From assembly GCF_003862485.1 (NCBI RefSeq), contig NZ_RRCM01000001.1:1681698-1729123 (forward strand): a stretch of 47,426 nt of DNA, in the 5' to 3' direction. Position 1 is the first letter of the stretch, and each line of letters begins with the position of its first letter. A program made the position numbers and the translations under genes. The stretch comes from Lachnoanaerobaculum orale (GTDB lineage: Bacteria > Bacillota > Clostridia > Lachnospirales > Lachnospiraceae). Below are positions 219 through 36,160 of the stretch, piece after piece. The notes below the pieces were generated by a model. It worked only from the letters and a program-made list of their open reading frames with translations, did no database searches and was not told the origin of the DNA.

Positions 219-619
219 TTGTTCTTTCCGTTACCCTTAATACGATATATTTCATCAACACTGTATGGCAACTGTGAAAGATAACTTCTTGTTATTATTA
301 GGAAGTAATTATCGCAATCCTTTACCTTGCTTGCAAATTCCTTTGAAAAAACAAACTTGCTTCCTTCATCAATCACTACAACAGTATTACTCAATTTATC
401 AAGCTCGTCTTCCCAATTTTTCCCTTCCAGTGTTACAATATTTCCACCGCTAATCTTTACTCCGCTTTCTTTTCCCATATTATTGTAATCTCTAATCATA
501 TCATACAATGTGGTCTTTCCGGTGCCGCTATCTCCACGAAGAATAGTAATATTTCGATTTAATGTGAATTTATAAGAGTTTCTTTGATTGCTTATCTTAA
601 TACTTACCCTACCAACCAT
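188..619 (-). CDS. P-loop ATPase, short copy (partner of DUF4869 protein, copy A)
   Basis: A 143-residue protein with a clear Walker A motif, GDSGTGKTT, near residue 30 and a Walker B strand ending in VVVIDEG near residue 85. It aligns along its length with the N-terminal half of the 321-residue ATPase at 31940-32905 (shared ITI-x-x-GDS-x-TGKTT, IDEG and LPYSV-[DE]-EIY blocks), so it is a shortened paralogue. Its start overlaps the stop of the upstream DUF4869 gene by one base (TAATG), so the two are translationally coupled. After its TGA stop, another frame stays open to a TAA at 94-96 and reads NIIISEEAEST..., which loosely resembles the VVTEDSNS segment of the long copy. The gene may therefore be a frameshifted, truncated version. 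The reaction and substrate are unknown. Confidence 0.75.
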   Translation of the reverse strand: MVGRVSIKISNQRNSYKFTLNRNITILRGDSGTGKTTLYDMIRDYNNMGKESGVKISGGNIVTLEGKNWEDELDKLSNTVVVIDEGSKFVFSKEFASKVKDCDNYFLIITRSYLSQLPYSVDEIYRIKGNGKNKEFERKHHNK

Positions 620-1074
620 TACTGCATATTCTCCTTAAGATATTTATCCGCCTCATCTAAAAACTCTCTCATATTATGCACTATTAGTTTTCTATCATTT
701 AAAATACGAATTTCAAAGTCTTCTTTTCCGAAATCCATTATATGATATAGAGCTATCGTGAAACTTTTTTCTTTTCCAAGCTTTAGTATCCATTTTGCAC
801 AATTATCTCCACAATTTGATGCATTAAACGTTTTACCCGGTTCATTTTTCATAAGAATCAATGCCTTTACGCCACCTGACAATTTATCCGGCGGAATTTG
901 CCCTAAAACCGGACTTTGAATAGTATTTGCATCCAAAACTTCAGATCTGTCAATATCTTTAATAGCAGCTCTTGCAAATTCATCTGTAATCCAGCTGTCT
1001 TTATATCTATTTCTAAAATATACCGATGTATTATATATTACATTATCTCTATTACCAAACCAAACTCTAAGCAT
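619..1074 (-). CDS. DUF4869 family protein (copy A)
   Basis: A 151-residue cytoplasmic protein with no signal peptide or membrane segment. I recognise it as DUF4869-like. Conserved blocks shared with copy B at 32921-33358 are IYNT-x-x-YF near the start, SPVLG-x-IPP, LSGGVK-x-LIL, FNAS-x-CGDNCAKW and H-x-MDFGKE. The CGDNC pair of cysteines and the SGG loop look functional (metal, redox or ligand binding), but no activity is known to me. It starts at an ATG behind a GGAGG site. It is the first gene of a two-gene unit with the P-loop ATPase, and the same pair recurs about 32 kb away. A TATAAT at 1118-1123 (minus strand) may be its -10 box. Confidence 0.75.
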   Translation of the reverse strand: MLRVWFGNRDNVIYNTSVYFRNRYKDSWITDEFARAAIKDIDRSEVLDANTIQSPVLGQIPPDKLSGGVKALILMKNEPGKTFNASNCGDNCAKWILKLGKEKSFTIALYHIMDFGKEDFEIRILNDRKLIVHNMREFLDEADKYLKENMQ

Positions 1075-30962: not shown

Positions 30963-31907
30963 ATGAAAAATATAACAGTTGCAGGTGGCGGTGTACTTGG
31001 CTCACAGATAGCATTTCAGACCGCTTTTTGCGGATTTGACGTAAAGATATGGCTTAGAAGTGAAGAGTCCATAGGAAGAACAAAGCCTAAGTTGGAAAGA
31101 TTATATAATATCTATAAGACAACACTTAATGAGGCAAAGAAAGAGCTCGGCACGGGAAAGGTATTTCCAAGAGGTTTAATCACAGATTCCTCTAAAATTA
31201 ATGAATCAGACATAGACAGACTTTTGGCAGCTGTCGATAAGGCTTATAATGAGATAAAACTTACTACAAGCCTTGAAGAAGCTTGCAAGGATGCCGACCT
31301 TATAATCGAGAGTATGGCTGAAAATCCTGAAGCCAAGGTTGCATTCTATAAGTCTCTTGATCCACATCTTGAAGCAAAGACTATAGTTGCCACCAACTCT
31401 TCAAGTATGGTTCCAAGTCAATTCCGTGAATATCTGAGCAGGCCGCAACAGTATCTTGCAATTCACTTTGCAAACAATATCTGGATCAGCAATACTGCCG
31501 AAATAATGGGACACAGCACCACATCAAAGGATGCTTATGAGGCTGTAGCCAAGTTTGCTTCAGATATTAAGATGATTCCTCTTCGTCTTAAGAAGGAGCA
31601 GCCCGGATATATACTGAACTCAATGCTTATACCTTTCCTTAATGCAGGTCAGATGTTGCTTGCAAATGAGGTGGCAGACCCTGCTACCATCGACCTAACA
31701 TGGAGACTCGGTACAGGCTCACCATACGGTCCGTTCCAAATCCTTGATATTGTAGGCCTTAACACAGCCCTTAATATAGTATCAAACAATCCGCTCTCAA
31801 AAGACCCGACTACCGTACAGGGCAAGATAAAAGCAATCCTTGAAAAGTATATTGCCGAAGGCAAAACCGGAGTGAATTCAGGGGAAGGATTCTATAAGTA
31901 TAATTAA
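30963..31907 (+). CDS. 3-hydroxyacyl-CoA dehydrogenase-type NAD enzyme
   Basis: 314 residues. Rossmann start ITVAGGGVLGSQIAFQTAFCG; the catalytic histidine in LAIHFANNIW followed by glutamate in AEIMGH, and PGYILNSML, the usual linker to the helical dimer domain. The family oxidises 3-hydroxyacyl-CoA, or related 3-hydroxy acids. There is no thiolase or crotonase next to it, so the substrate is open. It is divergent from the flavoprotein gene, and TATAAT near 30901 may be its -10 box. Confidence 0.85.
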   Translation: MKNITVAGGGVLGSQIAFQTAFCGFDVKIWLRSEESIGRTKPKLERLYNIYKTTLNEAKKELGTGKVFPRGLITDSSKINESDIDRLLAAVDKAYNEIKLTTSLEEACKDADLIIESMAENPEAKVAFYKSLDPHLEAKTIVATNSSSMVPSQFREYLSRPQQYLAIHFANNIWISNTAEIMGHSTTSKDAYEAVAKFASDIKMIPLRLKKEQPGYILNSMLIPFLNAGQMLLANEVADPATIDLTWRLGTGSPYGPFQILDIVGLNTALNIVSNNPLSKDPTTVQGKIKAILEKYIAEGKTGVNSGEGFYKYN

Positions 31908-31912
31908 AAATA

Positions 31913-31928
31913 GGGGGCGTAAGCCCCC
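31913..31928 (-). terminator. Terminator of the DUF4869/ATPase copy B unit
   Basis: GGGGGC (31913-31918) pairs with GCCCCC (31923-31928) around GTAA. On the minus strand it is followed by TATTTTTAATT, so it mainly serves the leftward ATPase gene. Confidence 0.8.
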
Positions 31929-31939
31929 TGAACGGTTCA

Positions 31940-32905
31940 TTAATTTAAATTGATATAGTTCATCTTTTCAAGAATTGCCTTTTTTACCGTGTCTGTCAAA
32001 TAAGCTGAGTTTAAATTCTTTTTCTTATATGCCAAGTAGCTGTCTTTTGTCATATCTATTAAAACAGCAGTGAAAAATCTCTCCCAGCTGAAATACTCTT
32101 TAGATTCTATAAAATCTGAAGGACTCTCCAATATACTATTCAACATAGAATTTCTTACTATTCCGGATAACAGCACTAACCATTCAAATGATTCGGGTAA
32201 ATATATTGCTATTCCTTTCTTCTCACTTATCAGCTCTGTTACTCTGTGCATTTCCGAACCGAATGCTGCACCATCTACTATTACAAGAGTATTTTCATTA
32301 CCGTGCGAATTCAAATACTGAAAAATGTTCGATTTACCGTTTAAACTTTCACATCTTAAATGTGCGTCATCACATATGTTTTTAAAAAACTGGTACCCTG
32401 AATTACTGTCTTCAGTCACAACAATATCAGGATTTATTGACCCTTTATATATATCCGCGCCATAGATTCTGTAAAACTCATTAAACTTCTGTTCAAGCCT
32501 TCCATACTTTCCTGAAGTTTTTATACCATATATCTCCTCTACACTATATGGTAGAGCAGGCAATGACTCCCTGGTTACAATAACATAATAATTATCTGTG
32601 TTTTGAATAAACTTTGAAAACTCTATTGTTTTTATGAATTCATTTCCTTCATCAATAAATACTATACTGTCTGAAACAGCTGCCAGCTGTTCCTTCCACA
32701 ATGTACCGTCAAGTACAAAACATTTTTTATCACATACCAAATCAACGGCTGCTCCGGAAGGATTGTTTACCGCTTCCCTAATCATATCAACTAATGTAGT
32801 CTTACCGGTCGCGCTGTCTCCTTGGATAATTGTTATATTTCTCCTTATCTCAAAGTCGTATTTCAGACGCTTTGTAGAAACAATAACTCTATGCTTTCCT
32901 TTCAT
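31940..32905 (-). CDS. P-loop ATPase with unknown C-terminal domain (partner of DUF4869 protein, copy B)
   Basis: 321 residues, cytoplasmic. Walker A GDSATGKTT is at residues 29-37; the Walker B strand ends in IVFIDEG (81-87); VTRESLPALPYSVEEIYG follows. Residues about 165-321 form a second domain with PDIVVTEDSNSGYQFFKNIC and NTLVIVDGAAFGSEM. The order ATPase, then E-containing strand, then a VDG strand recalls a reduced TOPRIM-like arrangement as in OLD-type nucleases, but the second acidic residue is not seen; this is speculation. It directly follows the DUF4869 gene (15-base gap) and the pair has its own promoter and terminator. Confidence 0.78.
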   Translation of the reverse strand: MKGKHRVIVSTKRLKYDFEIRRNITIIQGDSATGKTTLVDMIREAVNNPSGAAVDLVCDKKCFVLDGTLWKEQLAAVSDSIVFIDEGNEFIKTIEFSKFIQNTDNYYVIVTRESLPALPYSVEEIYGIKTSGKYGRLEQKFNEFYRIYGADIYKGSINPDIVVTEDSNSGYQFFKNICDDAHLRCESLNGKSNIFQYLNSHGNENTLVIVDGAAFGSEMHRVTELISEKKGIAIYLPESFEWLVLLSGIVRNSMLNSILESPSDFIESKEYFSWERFFTAVLIDMTKDSYLAYKKKNLNSAYLTDTVKKAILEKMNYINLN

Positions 32906-32920
32906 AATATCACATCTTTT

Positions 32921-33358
32921 CTATACAAATTCGCCTGCTATACTTACAAGTTCCATTTTTGTATGTACTATTTGGTTTGTGTTCAATATCAATATATCAA
33001 ATCCTTCTTTACCGAAGTCCATCAAATGGTGCAGATTGATTGTCCTGTCTTCTTTCTCTGCAATCTTTAAAAACCATTTGGCACAATTATCACCACAGGT
33101 AGATGCATTAAATATCTTATCTTTTTCAAATTTGACCAAAATTAATGTCTTTACTCCACCTGATAAGCCTGTTGGAGGTATTTTGCCTAATACGGGGCTG
33201 TCTATTACTCCACTGTCTAAAACAACCGACTTATCTACATCATAAATCATCTCTTTTACAAACGGGTCCACTATCCAATCATCCTCGTAATCATACTTAA
33301 AATAAGATGCCGTATTATAAATAGACTCTTTCATATCTCCGTAAAAAATTTTCAGCAT
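32921..33358 (-). CDS. DUF4869 family protein (copy B)
   Basis: 145 residues. I use the ATG at 33358 (MLKIFYGD), which has GGAAGGTGG just upstream, rather than an ATG 69 bases earlier. It shares with copy A the blocks IYNT-x-x-YF, SPVLGKIPP, LSGGVKTLIL, FNASTCGDNCAKW and HHLMDFGKE. No signal peptide or membrane segment. Function unknown. Two copies, each followed by the same type of ATPase, indicate a functional two-gene module. Confidence 0.78.
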   Translation of the reverse strand: MLKIFYGDMKESIYNTASYFKYDYEDDWIVDPFVKEMIYDVDKSVVLDSGVIDSPVLGKIPPTGLSGGVKTLILVKFEKDKIFNASTCGDNCAKWFLKIAEKEDRTINLHHLMDFGKEGFDILILNTNQIVHTKMELVSIAGEFV

Positions 33359-33407
33359 AATCCACCTTCCAAACCTCAAATAATCTAAAACCAATCTCAG
33401 TATACAA

Positions 33408-33435
33408 ATTATATCGTCGGAATACAATATTTCAA
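33408..33435 (-). promoter_or_regulatory. Promoter of DUF4869/ATPase copy B
   Basis: TTGAAA (33430-33435) and TATAAT (33408-33413), 16 bases apart, on the minus strand. It lies between the terminator of the upstream secreted-protein operon and the DUF4869 gene, so copy B is its own transcription unit. Confidence 0.7.
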
Positions 33436-33439
33436 ACCT

Positions 33440-33480
33440 AAAAAGACTGACGCCCTATGTCTTTCATAAGGTGACAGTCT
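33440..33480 (-). terminator. Terminator of the secreted-protein pair
   Basis: On the minus strand AGACTG pairs with CAGTCT (outer stem 33444-33449 with 33475-33480), with further pairing inside, followed by TTTT. Confidence 0.7.
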
Positions 33481-33490
33481 ATTAAATTTA

Positions 33491-34177
33491 CTATCTGAGG
33501 TGTGCGCTGCCTGCAGGATACAGACCTGCTTCAGCCAATAAATCTTCCATGGTCTTATAGCCTCTTTCAGCTATTCTTGCTTGGCGTGCCGCATCTTCTT
33601 CAGCAATTCTTGCATCTTGGTCAGCCTTTCTAAGCGCTTCATATCTCTCAGCATCGGCATCTATTCCTATCATATCACTGCCGCCACAATTATATGCGTT
33701 AGCCTTATTGTATCCGAGACCTTCCAAACTTTTTAAAGTGGCTTCACTTAGAGTCTCCAGATATTCATGTTCTCCACTTCCAAACCTTATTTTATCCATG
33801 GATATCTTAATACCTCTGTACATATCTCCGTCAGATAAGTATCTTCCATAAGTACCGCTACCCTTTGTATCATCCAAAAAACCGTAAAGCAATTTATCAG
33901 GCATTAAACTAGACTTATTACAAATCAAACCTGTAATCATTTTGCCGTTTGCATCAACATAATAATCATTATCATGATCTATTATATTTGCATTCTTTAC
34001 AAGTTGACCGTCCTTATAATATCCCCACTGATTGTCGGCACCCAACTTCCAATTATCACAGAATGTCTTTCCGTCATTCAATACGCTGTTATAATCAACA
34101 TCCGCATATGAACATATGGGCATAGATAACGCCATTATACATACTGCAGCTACCACTTTATTAAGCAATCTTTTCAT
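33491..34177 (-). CDS. Secreted protein with wall-binding repeat and charged helical tail
   Basis: 228 residues. A signal peptide (KVVAAVCIMALSMPICSYA) is cleaved near residue 25. Residues about 42-80 hold one or two choline/glucan-binding-like repeats (WGYYKDGQLVKN; YYVDANGKMITG). The middle part (YGRYLSDGDMYRGIKIS) is unrecognised; residues about 165-210 are a charged alanine/arginine/glutamate helix (YEALRKADQDARIAEE), probably coiled coil. It is the second gene of a unit with the transglutaminase-like protein (13-base gap). Function unknown; surface location is likely. Confidence 0.7.
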   Translation of the reverse strand: MKRLLNKVVAAVCIMALSMPICSYADVDYNSVLNDGKTFCDNWKLGADNQWGYYKDGQLVKNANIIDHDNDYYVDANGKMITGLICNKSSLMPDKLLYGFLDDTKGSGTYGRYLSDGDMYRGIKISMDKIRFGSGEHEYLETLSEATLKSLEGLGYNKANAYNCGGSDMIGIDADAERYEALRKADQDARIAEEDAARQARIAERGYKTMEDLLAEAGLYPAGSAHLR

Positions 34178-34190
34178 CTTTTTACTCCTA

Positions 34191-35078
34191 TTAATATAGT
34201 CCCCTCATCATATCTTCAGTAACTTGGCTCATATCACCTGAAATGTACGGATGTGTACCGAATCCGCAGCCGTATCCCATAGCATCGGCATATCCTGTTT
34301 TACCGTCCATATTTACAATACACCATTGGTGAGTCCACTGATTCGGATTGGCATGTTCCCAATCGTATCCCATAAAATCAAGTACTCTGCCAAGCGCTCT
34401 GGCACCGCCTGCACAAGTATATACACCTGCAATAAATACTCCGTAAGGTCCTCTGTAATACTTGTTGGCATCGGTTCCGTATGTGTTATGTAAATTGTAT
34501 TCTCTATATATTATTGATGCGGCCTTTCTTATCTTAGCCAAATCGGTAGTAAGAGAGTTATCCGATAAAACTCTTGTAGCAATATTCCTTGCTACCGCAT
34601 CAGCCTGATTTGCCTGCTCCTGTGTACAATATTTATAATAGTCATGCTTTCCGAGGCTGCTTGCGGCTCTCGCTTCATCAAGTGTAACTTGTTTTTGAGA
34701 TGTTGCCGAACTGTTTCCTGAAATCCACGCTCCGTCTGCGCCTACCTGATATCCATCAGGTGTAGTGGTATTTGTCAACATTCCGCCGTTTGAACCGAGG
34801 TAATAGTTACCTACCCAGCAGTTTGACGCCATTTTGCCGCCGTCATCAAAGTAATACCATGTACCCTTGATGTCCTTCCATCCGGTAGTCATAAAGCCGC
34901 CTGAATTAAGATAGTACCACGCACCGGAGTCATTAATCCATTCATCCTGTACTGCATACTGATAATCTTTCGTATAGCGCCAGTTTGACCCCTCTTTGTA
35001 CCATTGACCTGCAAATGCGGTGGAAGCTGTCGATATCGCAGTTGCCACCAATATTGTACCGAAAGCCAATTTTTTCAT
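34191..35078 (-). CDS. Secreted transglutaminase-like protein with wall-binding repeats
   Basis: 295 residues. Signal peptide about 1-25 (LAFGTILVATAISTASTAFA). Residues about 26-120 carry several wall-binding repeats (W-Y-x-N-x-G-G patterns such as GWKDIKGTWYYFDDGGKM). Residues about 150-295 look like a transglutaminase/cysteine-protease fold: the catalytic cysteine in GVYTCAGGARALG, histidine in THQWCIVNMDGK and aspartate in GYADAMGYG. Such proteins act on cell-wall peptides or proteins. I use the ATG at 35078; AAAGGAGG is upstream. Confidence 0.82.
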   Translation of the reverse strand: MKKLAFGTILVATAISTASTAFAGQWYKEGSNWRYTKDYQYAVQDEWINDSGAWYYLNSGGFMTTGWKDIKGTWYYFDDGGKMASNCWVGNYYLGSNGGMLTNTTTPDGYQVGADGAWISGNSSATSQKQVTLDEARAASSLGKHDYYKYCTQEQANQADAVARNIATRVLSDNSLTTDLAKIRKAASIIYREYNLHNTYGTDANKYYRGPYGVFIAGVYTCAGGARALGRVLDFMGYDWEHANPNQWTHQWCIVNMDGKTGYADAMGYGCGFGTHPYISGDMSQVTEDMMRGLY

Positions 35079-35238
35079 CACAAAACCTCCTTTAAGTGTT
35101 TTATGTGCAGATAGTTAATTAAATATAACTATTGTTTAATATTATCTTAATTATAGATACAAATTTTATTAAAATCAATGCTATATACAAAAAATGATTT
35201 ACATAAATATTGTTTATGTCGACTTTTTCATTATTACT

Positions 35239-35270
35239 CAAAAAACCGACGCCCTGTCTAAGGCGTCGGT
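35239..35270 (-). terminator. Terminator of the sdaA operon
   Basis: ACCGACGCC (35245-35253) pairs with GGCGTCGGT (35262-35270); on the minus strand a T run follows. It directly follows sdaAA. The remaining intergenic stretch (35082-35238) holds only AT-rich sequence, probably the promoter region of the transglutaminase gene. Confidence 0.85.
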
Positions 35271-35290
35271 CATATATTTTAATACTTTGT

Positions 35291-36160
35291 TTACCCACAC
35301 ATCCCGCAGGCTTCACAGGCACTCTTTGTGACTGCGCAGCCTCCAAGAGCGGTTTCTCTGAGTTCTACAGGCATTCTCTTGCCTACTCTATACATCGTGT
35401 CAAGCATCTCATCAAAAGGGATGAGCTGCGTAATACCTGCAAGTGCCATATCTGTTGCCACCAAGGCGTTGGCTACGCCTGAGGCGTTACGGTTTTGACA
35501 CGGGTACTCTACCAGTCCTCCTACAGGGTCACATACAAGACCCAGCATATTCATAAGGACTGTTGACGCGGCATCAAGGCTCTGCCTCGGTGTACCTCCC
35601 ATCAGCTCCACGGCACCTGCCGCAGCCATAGCAGAAGCCACTCCCATCTCCGCCTGACAGCCGCCTACAGCACCTGCAACCGTAGCGTTTCTCATTGCAA
35701 GATAGCCTATTGCACCTGCAGCAAACAGTGCATCCATTATCTTGTCGTCTGAAAATGAGTACACATCCTGCATTGCCAACAAAAGACCCGGCACTACACC
35801 TGATGAACCTGCTGTAGGTGCGGCCACGATAAGTCCCATTGATGCATTGCACTCAAGTACCGCCATGGCATACATCATGCCCCTGCTCAGCACTGAGCTG
35901 CTGATGTTTTTCTTTGCCTCTCTGTAATCACTGAGTTTTTTTGCTTCTCCGCCTATCAGACCTCCCATTGATTTCATAGGTGTGTTGATAGGCATTGTTG
36001 CGGAATCTCTCATGATTTGAAGGACTCTTTTCATCTTTTCTTTTATCTCTTCTTTTGAGCTTGTACTCTCATCACATTCCCTTTGCTTCATCACCTCGGA
36101 AATGGACATTTTATTACTATCACAAAGCTCTAAAAGTTCTTTTGCATTGCTAAAATCCAT
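35291..36160 (-). CDS. sdaAA: L-serine dehydratase, iron-sulfur-dependent, alpha subunit
   Basis: 289 residues. Conserved cysteines for the [4Fe-4S] cluster in LVCDPVGG, YPCQNRN and GGCAVTKSACEACG; APTAGSSGVVPG and SMGGLIGGEAKKL match the family. With the beta subunit it converts L-serine to pyruvate and ammonia; the cluster is oxygen-sensitive, which fits an anaerobe. It is 8 bases downstream of sdaAB and is the last gene of the unit. Confidence 0.96.
   Translation of the reverse strand: MDFSNAKELLELCDSNKMSISEVMKQRECDESTSSKEEIKEKMKRVLQIMRDSATMPINTPMKSMGGLIGGEAKKLSDYREAKKNISSSVLSRGMMYAMAVLECNASMGLIVAAPTAGSSGVVPGLLLAMQDVYSFSDDKIMDALFAAGAIGYLAMRNATVAGAVGGCQAEMGVASAMAAAGAVELMGGTPRQSLDAASTVLMNMLGLVCDPVGGLVEYPCQNRNASGVANALVATDMALAGITQLIPFDEMLDTMYRVGKRMPVELRETALGGCAVTKSACEACGMCG

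What the first reader, a model, noticed from the sequence alone, without database searches (positions are those of the whole stretch)
31940..33358. Uncharacterised two-gene module: DUF4869 protein plus P-loop ATPase
The pair has its own promoter (33408-33435) and terminator (31913-31928), and the same pair occurs again at 188-1074 in the same gene order and orientation. The DUF4869 copies share strongly conserved SGGVK and CGDNC motifs. The ATPase has a second domain with conserved-looking acidic strands. A paired, duplicated, independently transcribed module next to accessory genes fits a stress, immunity or toxin-type system, but no function is known to me.
Basis: partly seen in the sequence, partly recalled or inferred. 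Interest (0 to 1): 0.75.

Follow-up and report, generated by a model that had tools for sequence, protein, structure and literature searches.

The report
Mobile split ATPase–nuclease-like gene module
Two undescribed neighbouring genes in a gut- and mouth-type bacterium form a tightly linked, mobile unit that looks like an ATP-driven switch divided over two proteins with a possible nuclease end attached, built somewhat like known phage-defence machines, but what it does has not been tested.

Summary
Window 31940-33358 (- strand) encodes a DUF4869 protein (PF16163, E 5.6e-62) and a 321-aa P-loop protein, with the claimed promoter-like site and terminator. The pair recurs at 188-1074, but that ATPase has lost its second half. 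The pair is a real module: the 30 ATPase loci examined all have DUF4869 directly upstream, the two proteins' distances correlate (r = 0.84), and the window copy sits in a 3.4-kb insert absent from that site in 5 of 5 congeners. It has three parts: in a divergent branch the ATPase is split into a P-loop protein and a separate third protein, genes adjacent. The invariant LSGG of DUF4869 falls on the ABC-ATPase signature, and the type I profile aligns collinearly with the C-terminal half of ABC ATPases (hhalign 71%; 0 of 60 shuffles as high); type II does not confirm this. The third domain has the strand order and acids of a TOPRIM-like nuclease, but its profile match is no better than shuffles. 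Best reading: an ABC-type switch split over two proteins, controlling a TOPRIM-like effector, probably phage defence or toxin-like. Structure prediction never ran (40 queue-full replies); no function was tested.

The parts
32921..33358 (-). DUF4869 protein, 145 aa; LSGGVK (residues 65-70) at 33149-33166, CGDNC (88-92), H111
31940..32905 (-). P-loop/TOPRIM-like protein, 321 aa, starts 15 nt after the DUF4869 stop codon
32459..32905 (-). P-loop half (residues 1-149): Walker A GDSATGKT, Walker B IVFIDE, invariant R112
31943..32458 (-). second domain (residues 150-321), TOPRIM-like by strand order only: TED (E165, D166), DGAAFG (D211), PESFEW (E238, E241), SWE
   Evidence: TOPRIM profile test not significant
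33408..33435 (-). promoter-like site TTGAAA-16-TATAAT
31912..31929 (-). intrinsic-terminator-like hairpin with T tail
31913..35290 (.). insert (limits approximate) carrying the module and two further genes, absent from this site in 5 of 5 congeners
619..1074 (-). second DUF4869 copy, 151 aa
188..619 (-). second ATPase copy, 143 aa, P-loop half only; C-terminal half lost

Best explanation
The module is a small mobile switch-and-effector system. The P-loop protein (Walker A and B) and DUF4869 (an ABC-type LSGG signature, probably on a degenerate ABC C-terminal half whose own Walker B is lost) would come together to make one ATP site, so the ATPase is split between two proteins. ATP binding or hydrolysis, set off by an infection or stress cue, would release or activate the third domain, a TOPRIM-like acidic domain, which would cut nucleic acid, plausibly tRNA or DNA, and stop growth or the phage, as ABC-plus-Toprim systems (OLD, PARIS) do. 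Shown: the linkage, the three-part architecture with a natural split, the conserved motifs, mobility and decay. Supported but not proven: the ABC-type signature in trans. Inferred: TOPRIM fold, nuclease activity, defence role.
For: Pairing: 30 of 30 loci examined. Co-inheritance: r = 0.84 in 51 pairs, highest of 1000 permutations 0.16. Split branch: of the 10 such loci whose ORFs were read, 9 show a third ORF with the D/FE motifs beside the P-loop gene (shortened in L149 and L152; none in L163), upstream in L146, L150, L151 and downstream in the other six. Profile links: third protein vs type I second domain 96% E 4.2e-9, P-loop 99% E 2e-18, DUF4869 98% E 1.3e-13; mismatched pairs 3.6% and 0.1%. 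ABC link: type I DUF4869 vs 39 ABC domains, hhalign 71%, E 3.6e-5, 73 columns from signature to the last strand with H111 on the H-loop His, 0 of 60 column shuffles as high (first seen with 10 domains, 70%); with LSGGVK masked the best alignment stays in the same register, 2 of 60 shuffles as high. The second domain gives 0.8% and 0.5% against ABC. Mobility: empty site in 5 of 5 congeners and an 87% identical copy elsewhere in one of them. Decay: of 102, 18 broken and 8 none.
Against: No structure, complex or activity. Most of the DUF4869-ABC score comes from the signature itself (signature piece alone 34.6, whole 35.8); among 33 neighbour-family profiles an unrelated one reached 26.1; the type II DUF4869 profile shows no ABC match (0.2%; 22 of 60 shuffles as high). 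DUF4869 lacks Walker A and a Walker B. The TOPRIM-like domain does not match an OLD-TOPRIM profile above shuffles (26, 30 and 24 of 60 as high for type I, type II and combined) and has DGAA where TOPRIMs have DxD. Against PADLOC only weak P-loop matches of the window proteins (best LmuB, E 2.8e-7 for the truncated copy) and none for the free third protein (0 of 7 members). Few virus contigs with DUF4869 were found (2).
Confidence: 0.4

Rival explanations
1. Toxin-antitoxin-like pair: DUF4869 is the antitoxin or immunity protein that restrains the ATPase-TOPRIM-like toxin; its LSGG resemblance to ABC proteins is incidental.
For: DUF4869 stays intact next to a broken effector gene in 18 of 102 cases and has none within 1.3 kb downstream in 8; 9 of 18 first lesions lie at residues 140-200, just after the P-loop half (uniform expectation about 3.7); a phage contig carries DUF4869 without a partner beside RtcB and Thg1 tRNA-repair-type genes.
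Against: The loci were mostly found through DUF4869, so loss of DUF4869 would be under-seen; the phage copy has an in-frame TAG; that intact ATPases come with DUF4869 would hold for any obligate partner.
Confidence: 0.25
2. A housekeeping or stress-signalling two-gene operon that moves by ordinary horizontal transfer, with no defence or toxin role; the second domain binds rather than cuts.
For: Neighbours look like ordinary metabolic and cell-surface genes with no consistent partner (names by eye); the TOPRIM test is not significant; DxD is not kept.
Against: Patchy occurrence (57 of 299 family genomes; 1 of 398 phylum genomes, the window's own), up to 13 matches in a genome, frequent decay, empty sites.
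Confidence: 0.2
3. A selfish mobile cassette whose proteins serve its own spread.
For: L099 and L105 share 82 nt upstream (100%) and 53 nt downstream (92%) of the pair and no further flank match; G088 has a transposase-like gene at the window's insertion site (name by eye).
Against: No element shared by the 65 upstream regions beyond close relatives. Terminal repeats were not searched for.
Confidence: 0.05

Closest known systems
OLD family (ABC ATPase plus TOPRIM nuclease in one chain)
   Same: P-loop ATPase followed by a TOPRIM-like domain; an ABC-type signature is part of the system
   Different: P-loop part is about 140 aa without signature or helical lobe; the signature sits in a separate protein; TOPRIM profile match not significant
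PARIS (AriA ABC ATPase plus AriB Toprim tRNase, sometimes fused)
   Same: ATPase and Toprim-type effector, fused and split forms (passages of PMC12409363 seen)
   Different: Here the fusion joins P-loop and third domain and the extra partner is DUF4869; no DUF4435 match and only weak AriA P-loop matches
ABC-transporter nucleotide-binding domains
   Same: LSGG signature and, for type I, collinear C-terminal half including the H-loop His
   Different: DUF4869 has no Walker A or B and no transporter partner; type II profile does not match
Lamassu LmuB (SMC-like)
   Same: Weak match of the truncated copy P0003 (E 2.8e-7)
   Different: Full-length P0001 only E 1.2e-4 over the P-loop; the protein is far shorter

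Membership tests
DUF4869 (PF16163) | profile match over the curated cut-off | tested here: met
   207.7 and 205.3 bits against 28.9
ABC ATPase superfamily (DUF4869 as signature half) | LSGG signature | tested here: met
   LSGG[VTA]K in 53 of 55; LS[ST]GCK in 7 of 7 type II proteins
ABC ATPase superfamily (DUF4869 as signature half) | Walker A and Walker B in the same chain | tested here: not met
   absent in DUF4869 by inspection; Walker A and B are in the partner
ABC ATPase superfamily (DUF4869 as signature half) | profile homology over the half domain | tested here: inconclusive
   type I 71%, 0 of 60 shuffles; type II 0.2%, 22 of 60; signature masked 2 of 60
OLD family | OLD-like TOPRIM domain | tested here: not met
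   no Pfam match; hhalign 0.2%, 26 of 60 shuffles as high
OLD family | full ABC ATPase in the same chain | tested here: not met
   no signature motif in the 321-aa protein family, by inspection of the consensus
PARIS | AriA and AriB/DUF4435 families | tested here: not met
   AriA only E 0.038 and 5.7e-4 over the P-loop; no DUF4435 listed
TOPRIM fold | E after strand 1 and DxD after strand 3 in a beta-alpha fold | tested here: inconclusive
   E165 and D211 invariant, second D missing; profile test at shuffle level; no structure obtained
Toxin-antitoxin pair | toxicity of one gene neutralised by the other | not testable with these tools
   needs expression
Anti-phage defence system | protection against a phage | not testable with these tools
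   needs plaque assays

The most novel reading that the evidence does not exclude
DUF4869 is a stand-alone ABC signature subunit: an ABC-type ATP site assembled from two separate proteins, neither a complete ABC ATPase, which gates a third TOPRIM-like nuclease part that exists both fused and as a free protein. This would be a new three-part immune or toxin machine of gut and oral anaerobes.
Probability: 0.33. Interest if true: 0.8.

Novelty: new variant of a known kind. Interest (0 to 1): 0.6.

Why it matters
If right, it gives a first mechanism for a domain of unknown function that matched in 57 of 299 examined genomes of this bacterial family, shows that an ABC ATP site can be divided between two polypeptides with the signature supplied in trans, and adds a split member to the ABC-plus-TOPRIM style of bacterial immunity. 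No paper in the held library names DUF4869 or PF16163.

Tried and rejected
Structure prediction: 40 calls (29, 30, 37, 38, 42, 44, 46, 49, 51, 54, 56, 60, 62, 67, 71, 76, 83, 85, 89, 92, 94, 97, 101, 103, 105, 107, 109, 111, 113, 115, 118, 120, 122, 124, 129, 132, 134, 136, 138, 141; alignment A2 in 30 and 38, A1 in the rest) all answered that the queue was full, so fold and complex are untested and no fold search was made.

Conserved RNA or DNA element upstream: none beyond close relatives in 65 upstream regions (63 loci and the two window copies). Recurrent neighbours: of the 25 largest clusters shown, none besides the module itself is in more than 18 of 80 loci, and that one is led by an ABC-transporter gene (name by eye). 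Phage carriage: 0 relatives for P0002 alone, 2 for the DUF4869 profile, 1 for the ATPase profile (the same contig as one of the two), 0 for type II DUF4869; these scans rest on a few short patterns and are lower bounds. Five GenBank 'Bacteriophage sp.' hits: four were opened and are unannotated faecal scaffolds, and the three whose ORFs were listed (L184, L186, L187) carry mainly bacterial-type genes by eye. Plasmid hits: 3; the one opened (L188) lies among chromosomal-type genes. Other partners for DUF4869: genes next to orphan copies look like unrelated housekeeping genes (by eye). A hotspot of breaks after the P-loop half is only moderate (9 of 18 at residues 140-200, P about 0.005 under a uniform model), and related loci may not be independent. 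Solved structures: only P-loop matches for the ATPase (best E 4.9e-6, a 115-aa phosphate-loop protein), none convincing for DUF4869 or the third protein. AAA_21 profile: the DUF4869 alignment lands on the signature but at 0.4-1.2% probability; 0, 6 and 0 of 60 shuffles as high for the combined, type I and type II profiles. Two paper searches for Toprim or split-ABC systems gave nothing on this module in their listings.

Full report
WHAT IS THERE. The window belongs to a genome of 2.80 Mb, by its nearest records a Lachnoanaerobaculum (relatives L033-L036, 84-97% identity; the genus is my inference). The DUF4869 start is taken as the ATG at 33358, because M1 and L2 are invariant in 55 relatives; the listed ORF runs further to a TTG. 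The second copy (188-1074) keeps DUF4869 and the P-loop half only. Relatives at that locus have a 321-aa ATPase in L033, L034 and L036 and a shortened one (216 aa) in L035, and similarity of the window copy to them ends near window 206, where sequence that lies downstream of the gene in L033 begins: the C-terminal half was deleted.

IT IS A MODULE. In 299 genomes of the family, PF16163 matches 57 (54 over cut-off) and the ATPase profile 44 at E 1e-8 (about seven candidates per genome were scored, so misses are possible). The 30 ATPase loci fetched (the best of 30 of those 44 genomes) all have DUF4869 upstream on the same strand. Not in that count are weak or partial ATPase matches; comparing by eye, a contig-end piece in G160, a remnant in G102 and a weak match in G213 have no DUF4869 match beside them. 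Seen from DUF4869, 160 places reduce to 102 distinct ones: 74 with an intact ATPase, 18 broken, 8 with none within 1.3 kb downstream, 2 at a contig edge; of the eight, L156 has ATPase pieces 1.7 kb away behind an inserted gene, and L154 has an intact ATPase upstream instead. The genes overlap or lie within about 30 nt in most of the loci listed. Distances between DUF4869 proteins track those between the ATPases (r = 0.84 in 51 pairs; largest of 1000 permutations 0.16).

IT MOVES. In 5 of 5 congeners the dehydrogenase gene (30963-31907) and the gene at 35291 are without the module between them; in four the aligned ends are 43-81 nt apart, in G088 a transposase-like gene (by eye) lies there. G088 carries a copy 87% identical over 31944-33446 at another place. 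L099 and L105 share 82 nt upstream (100%) and 53 nt downstream (92%) of the pair and no further flank match. In a draw of 398 genomes of the phylum only the window's own genome matched, but the named genome scan (442 of 496 candidate stretches confirmed, 80 kept) shows Collinsella and other gut lineages too: patchy, gut- and mouth-centred. One genome has 13 matches.

IT HAS THREE PARTS. Weak matches led to a divergent branch. ORFs of ten such loci were read: a DUF4869-like protein with LS[ST]GCK and ECGxN (nine of ten; no DUF4869 match in L152), a P-loop protein of 117-164 aa and, in nine of ten (not L163; shortened in L149 and L152), a separate protein with an acidic D / FE pattern like the second domain of the window ATPase. 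That third gene is upstream in L146, L150 and L151 and downstream in the other six. Profile comparison links each part to its type I counterpart: third protein 96% (E 4.2e-9), P-loop 99% (E 2e-18), DUF4869 98% (E 1.3e-13), while two mismatched comparisons gave 3.6% and 0.1%. So the window ATPase is a natural fusion of two parts that elsewhere are separate genes, and gene order is permuted. In L155 the order is P-loop protein first, then a DUF4869-like protein.

DUF4869 AND THE ABC SIGNATURE. The nearly invariant LSGGVK resembles LSGGQ of ABC ATPases. The type I profile aligned to 10 ABC domains from held loci at 70% and to 39 domains (29 from the window's own genome plus these 10) at 71%, E 3.6e-5, over 73 columns: signature, then the Walker B / D-loop stretch (where DUF4869 has FNASxCGDNC instead), then H111 on the H-loop histidine and the last strand. 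None of 60 column shuffles came near (best 20.3 against 35.8), and the reversed profile gave 13.5. Results against: the signature piece alone carries 34.6; among 33 neighbour-family profiles the best was an ABC-transporter cluster (31.4, name by eye) but an unrelated one reached 26.1; the type II DUF4869 profile gives 0.2% with 22 of 60 shuffles as high. For: with the six signature columns masked, the best alignment still falls on the H-loop stretch in the same register (17.4; 2 of 60 shuffles as high); the part before the signature gives nothing (37 of 60). I read this as a probable, not a proven, relation.

THE THIRD DOMAIN. Its order (my reading of the sequence) is strand-TED, helix, strand, helix, strand-DGAA, helix, strand-PESFEW, which is the TOPRIM order (recalled) with E165 and D211 in the catalytic places and E241 as a possible third acid. 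A direct profile test against eight OLD-type TOPRIM sequences (two are repeats of others) was not significant (26, 30 and 24 of 60 shuffles as high for type I, type II and combined), although the type I alignment put strands 2 and 3 in the expected register. No convincing Pfam, PADLOC or PDB relative was found. The TOPRIM name is therefore an inference.

HOW IT MAY WORK. An ABC site needs Walker A of one partner and the signature of the other (established for ABC and SMC-type ATPases; recalled). The P-loop protein has Walker A and B but no signature; DUF4869 has the signature but no Walker motifs; they go together. The simplest joint reading is one composite ATP site per heterodimer, gating the third part. 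PARIS and OLD pair an ABC ATPase with a Toprim effector, and AriB cleaves tRNA (passages of PMC12409363; the whole paper was not read). A phage contig (L189) with a stand-alone DUF4869 next to Thg1 and 3.3 kb from RtcB would fit tRNA damage and a counter-defence decoy, but it is one case and its gene has an in-frame TAG, so it is a lead only. Frequent loss of the C-terminal half while DUF4869 stays is also what a costly effector would show, with the caveat that loci were mostly found through DUF4869.

VERDICT. A genuine, undescribed, mobile module; the architecture and linkage are well supported, the split-ABC mechanism moderately, the nuclease and defence role weakly.

Noticed in passing
L189:3340-8450 (IMGVR_UViG_3300028797_000159): Phage contig with RtcB, Thg1 and a stand-alone DUF4869 whose frame holds one TAG at the place of an invariant Trp; in the 16.4 kb held, none of 23 ORFs over 100 aa ends in TAG.
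   Followed up: partly
window 33491-35081: Two genes next to the module in the same insert; 34191-35081 matches choline-binding repeats (E 3.6e-17), 33491-34177 only weakly (E 0.046).
   Followed up: no
L181:3308-5062: A transposase-like gene occupies the same intergenic site in congener G088 (name by eye).
   Followed up: no
L048:6533-9443: Two complete DUF4869-ATPase pairs in tandem.
   Followed up: no
L054:8108-8959: A single 283-aa frame near a contig end joins DUF4869 and the P-loop half.
   Followed up: no
L110:8001-8438 and L161:4311-4745: Two DUF4869 copies without a neighbouring ATPase have LSGSVK instead of LSGGVK; another such copy, L160, keeps LSGGVK.
   Followed up: no
L183:4305-4910: A SUKH/SMI1-like gene (by eye) lies next to the G088 copy of the module.
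   Followed up: no
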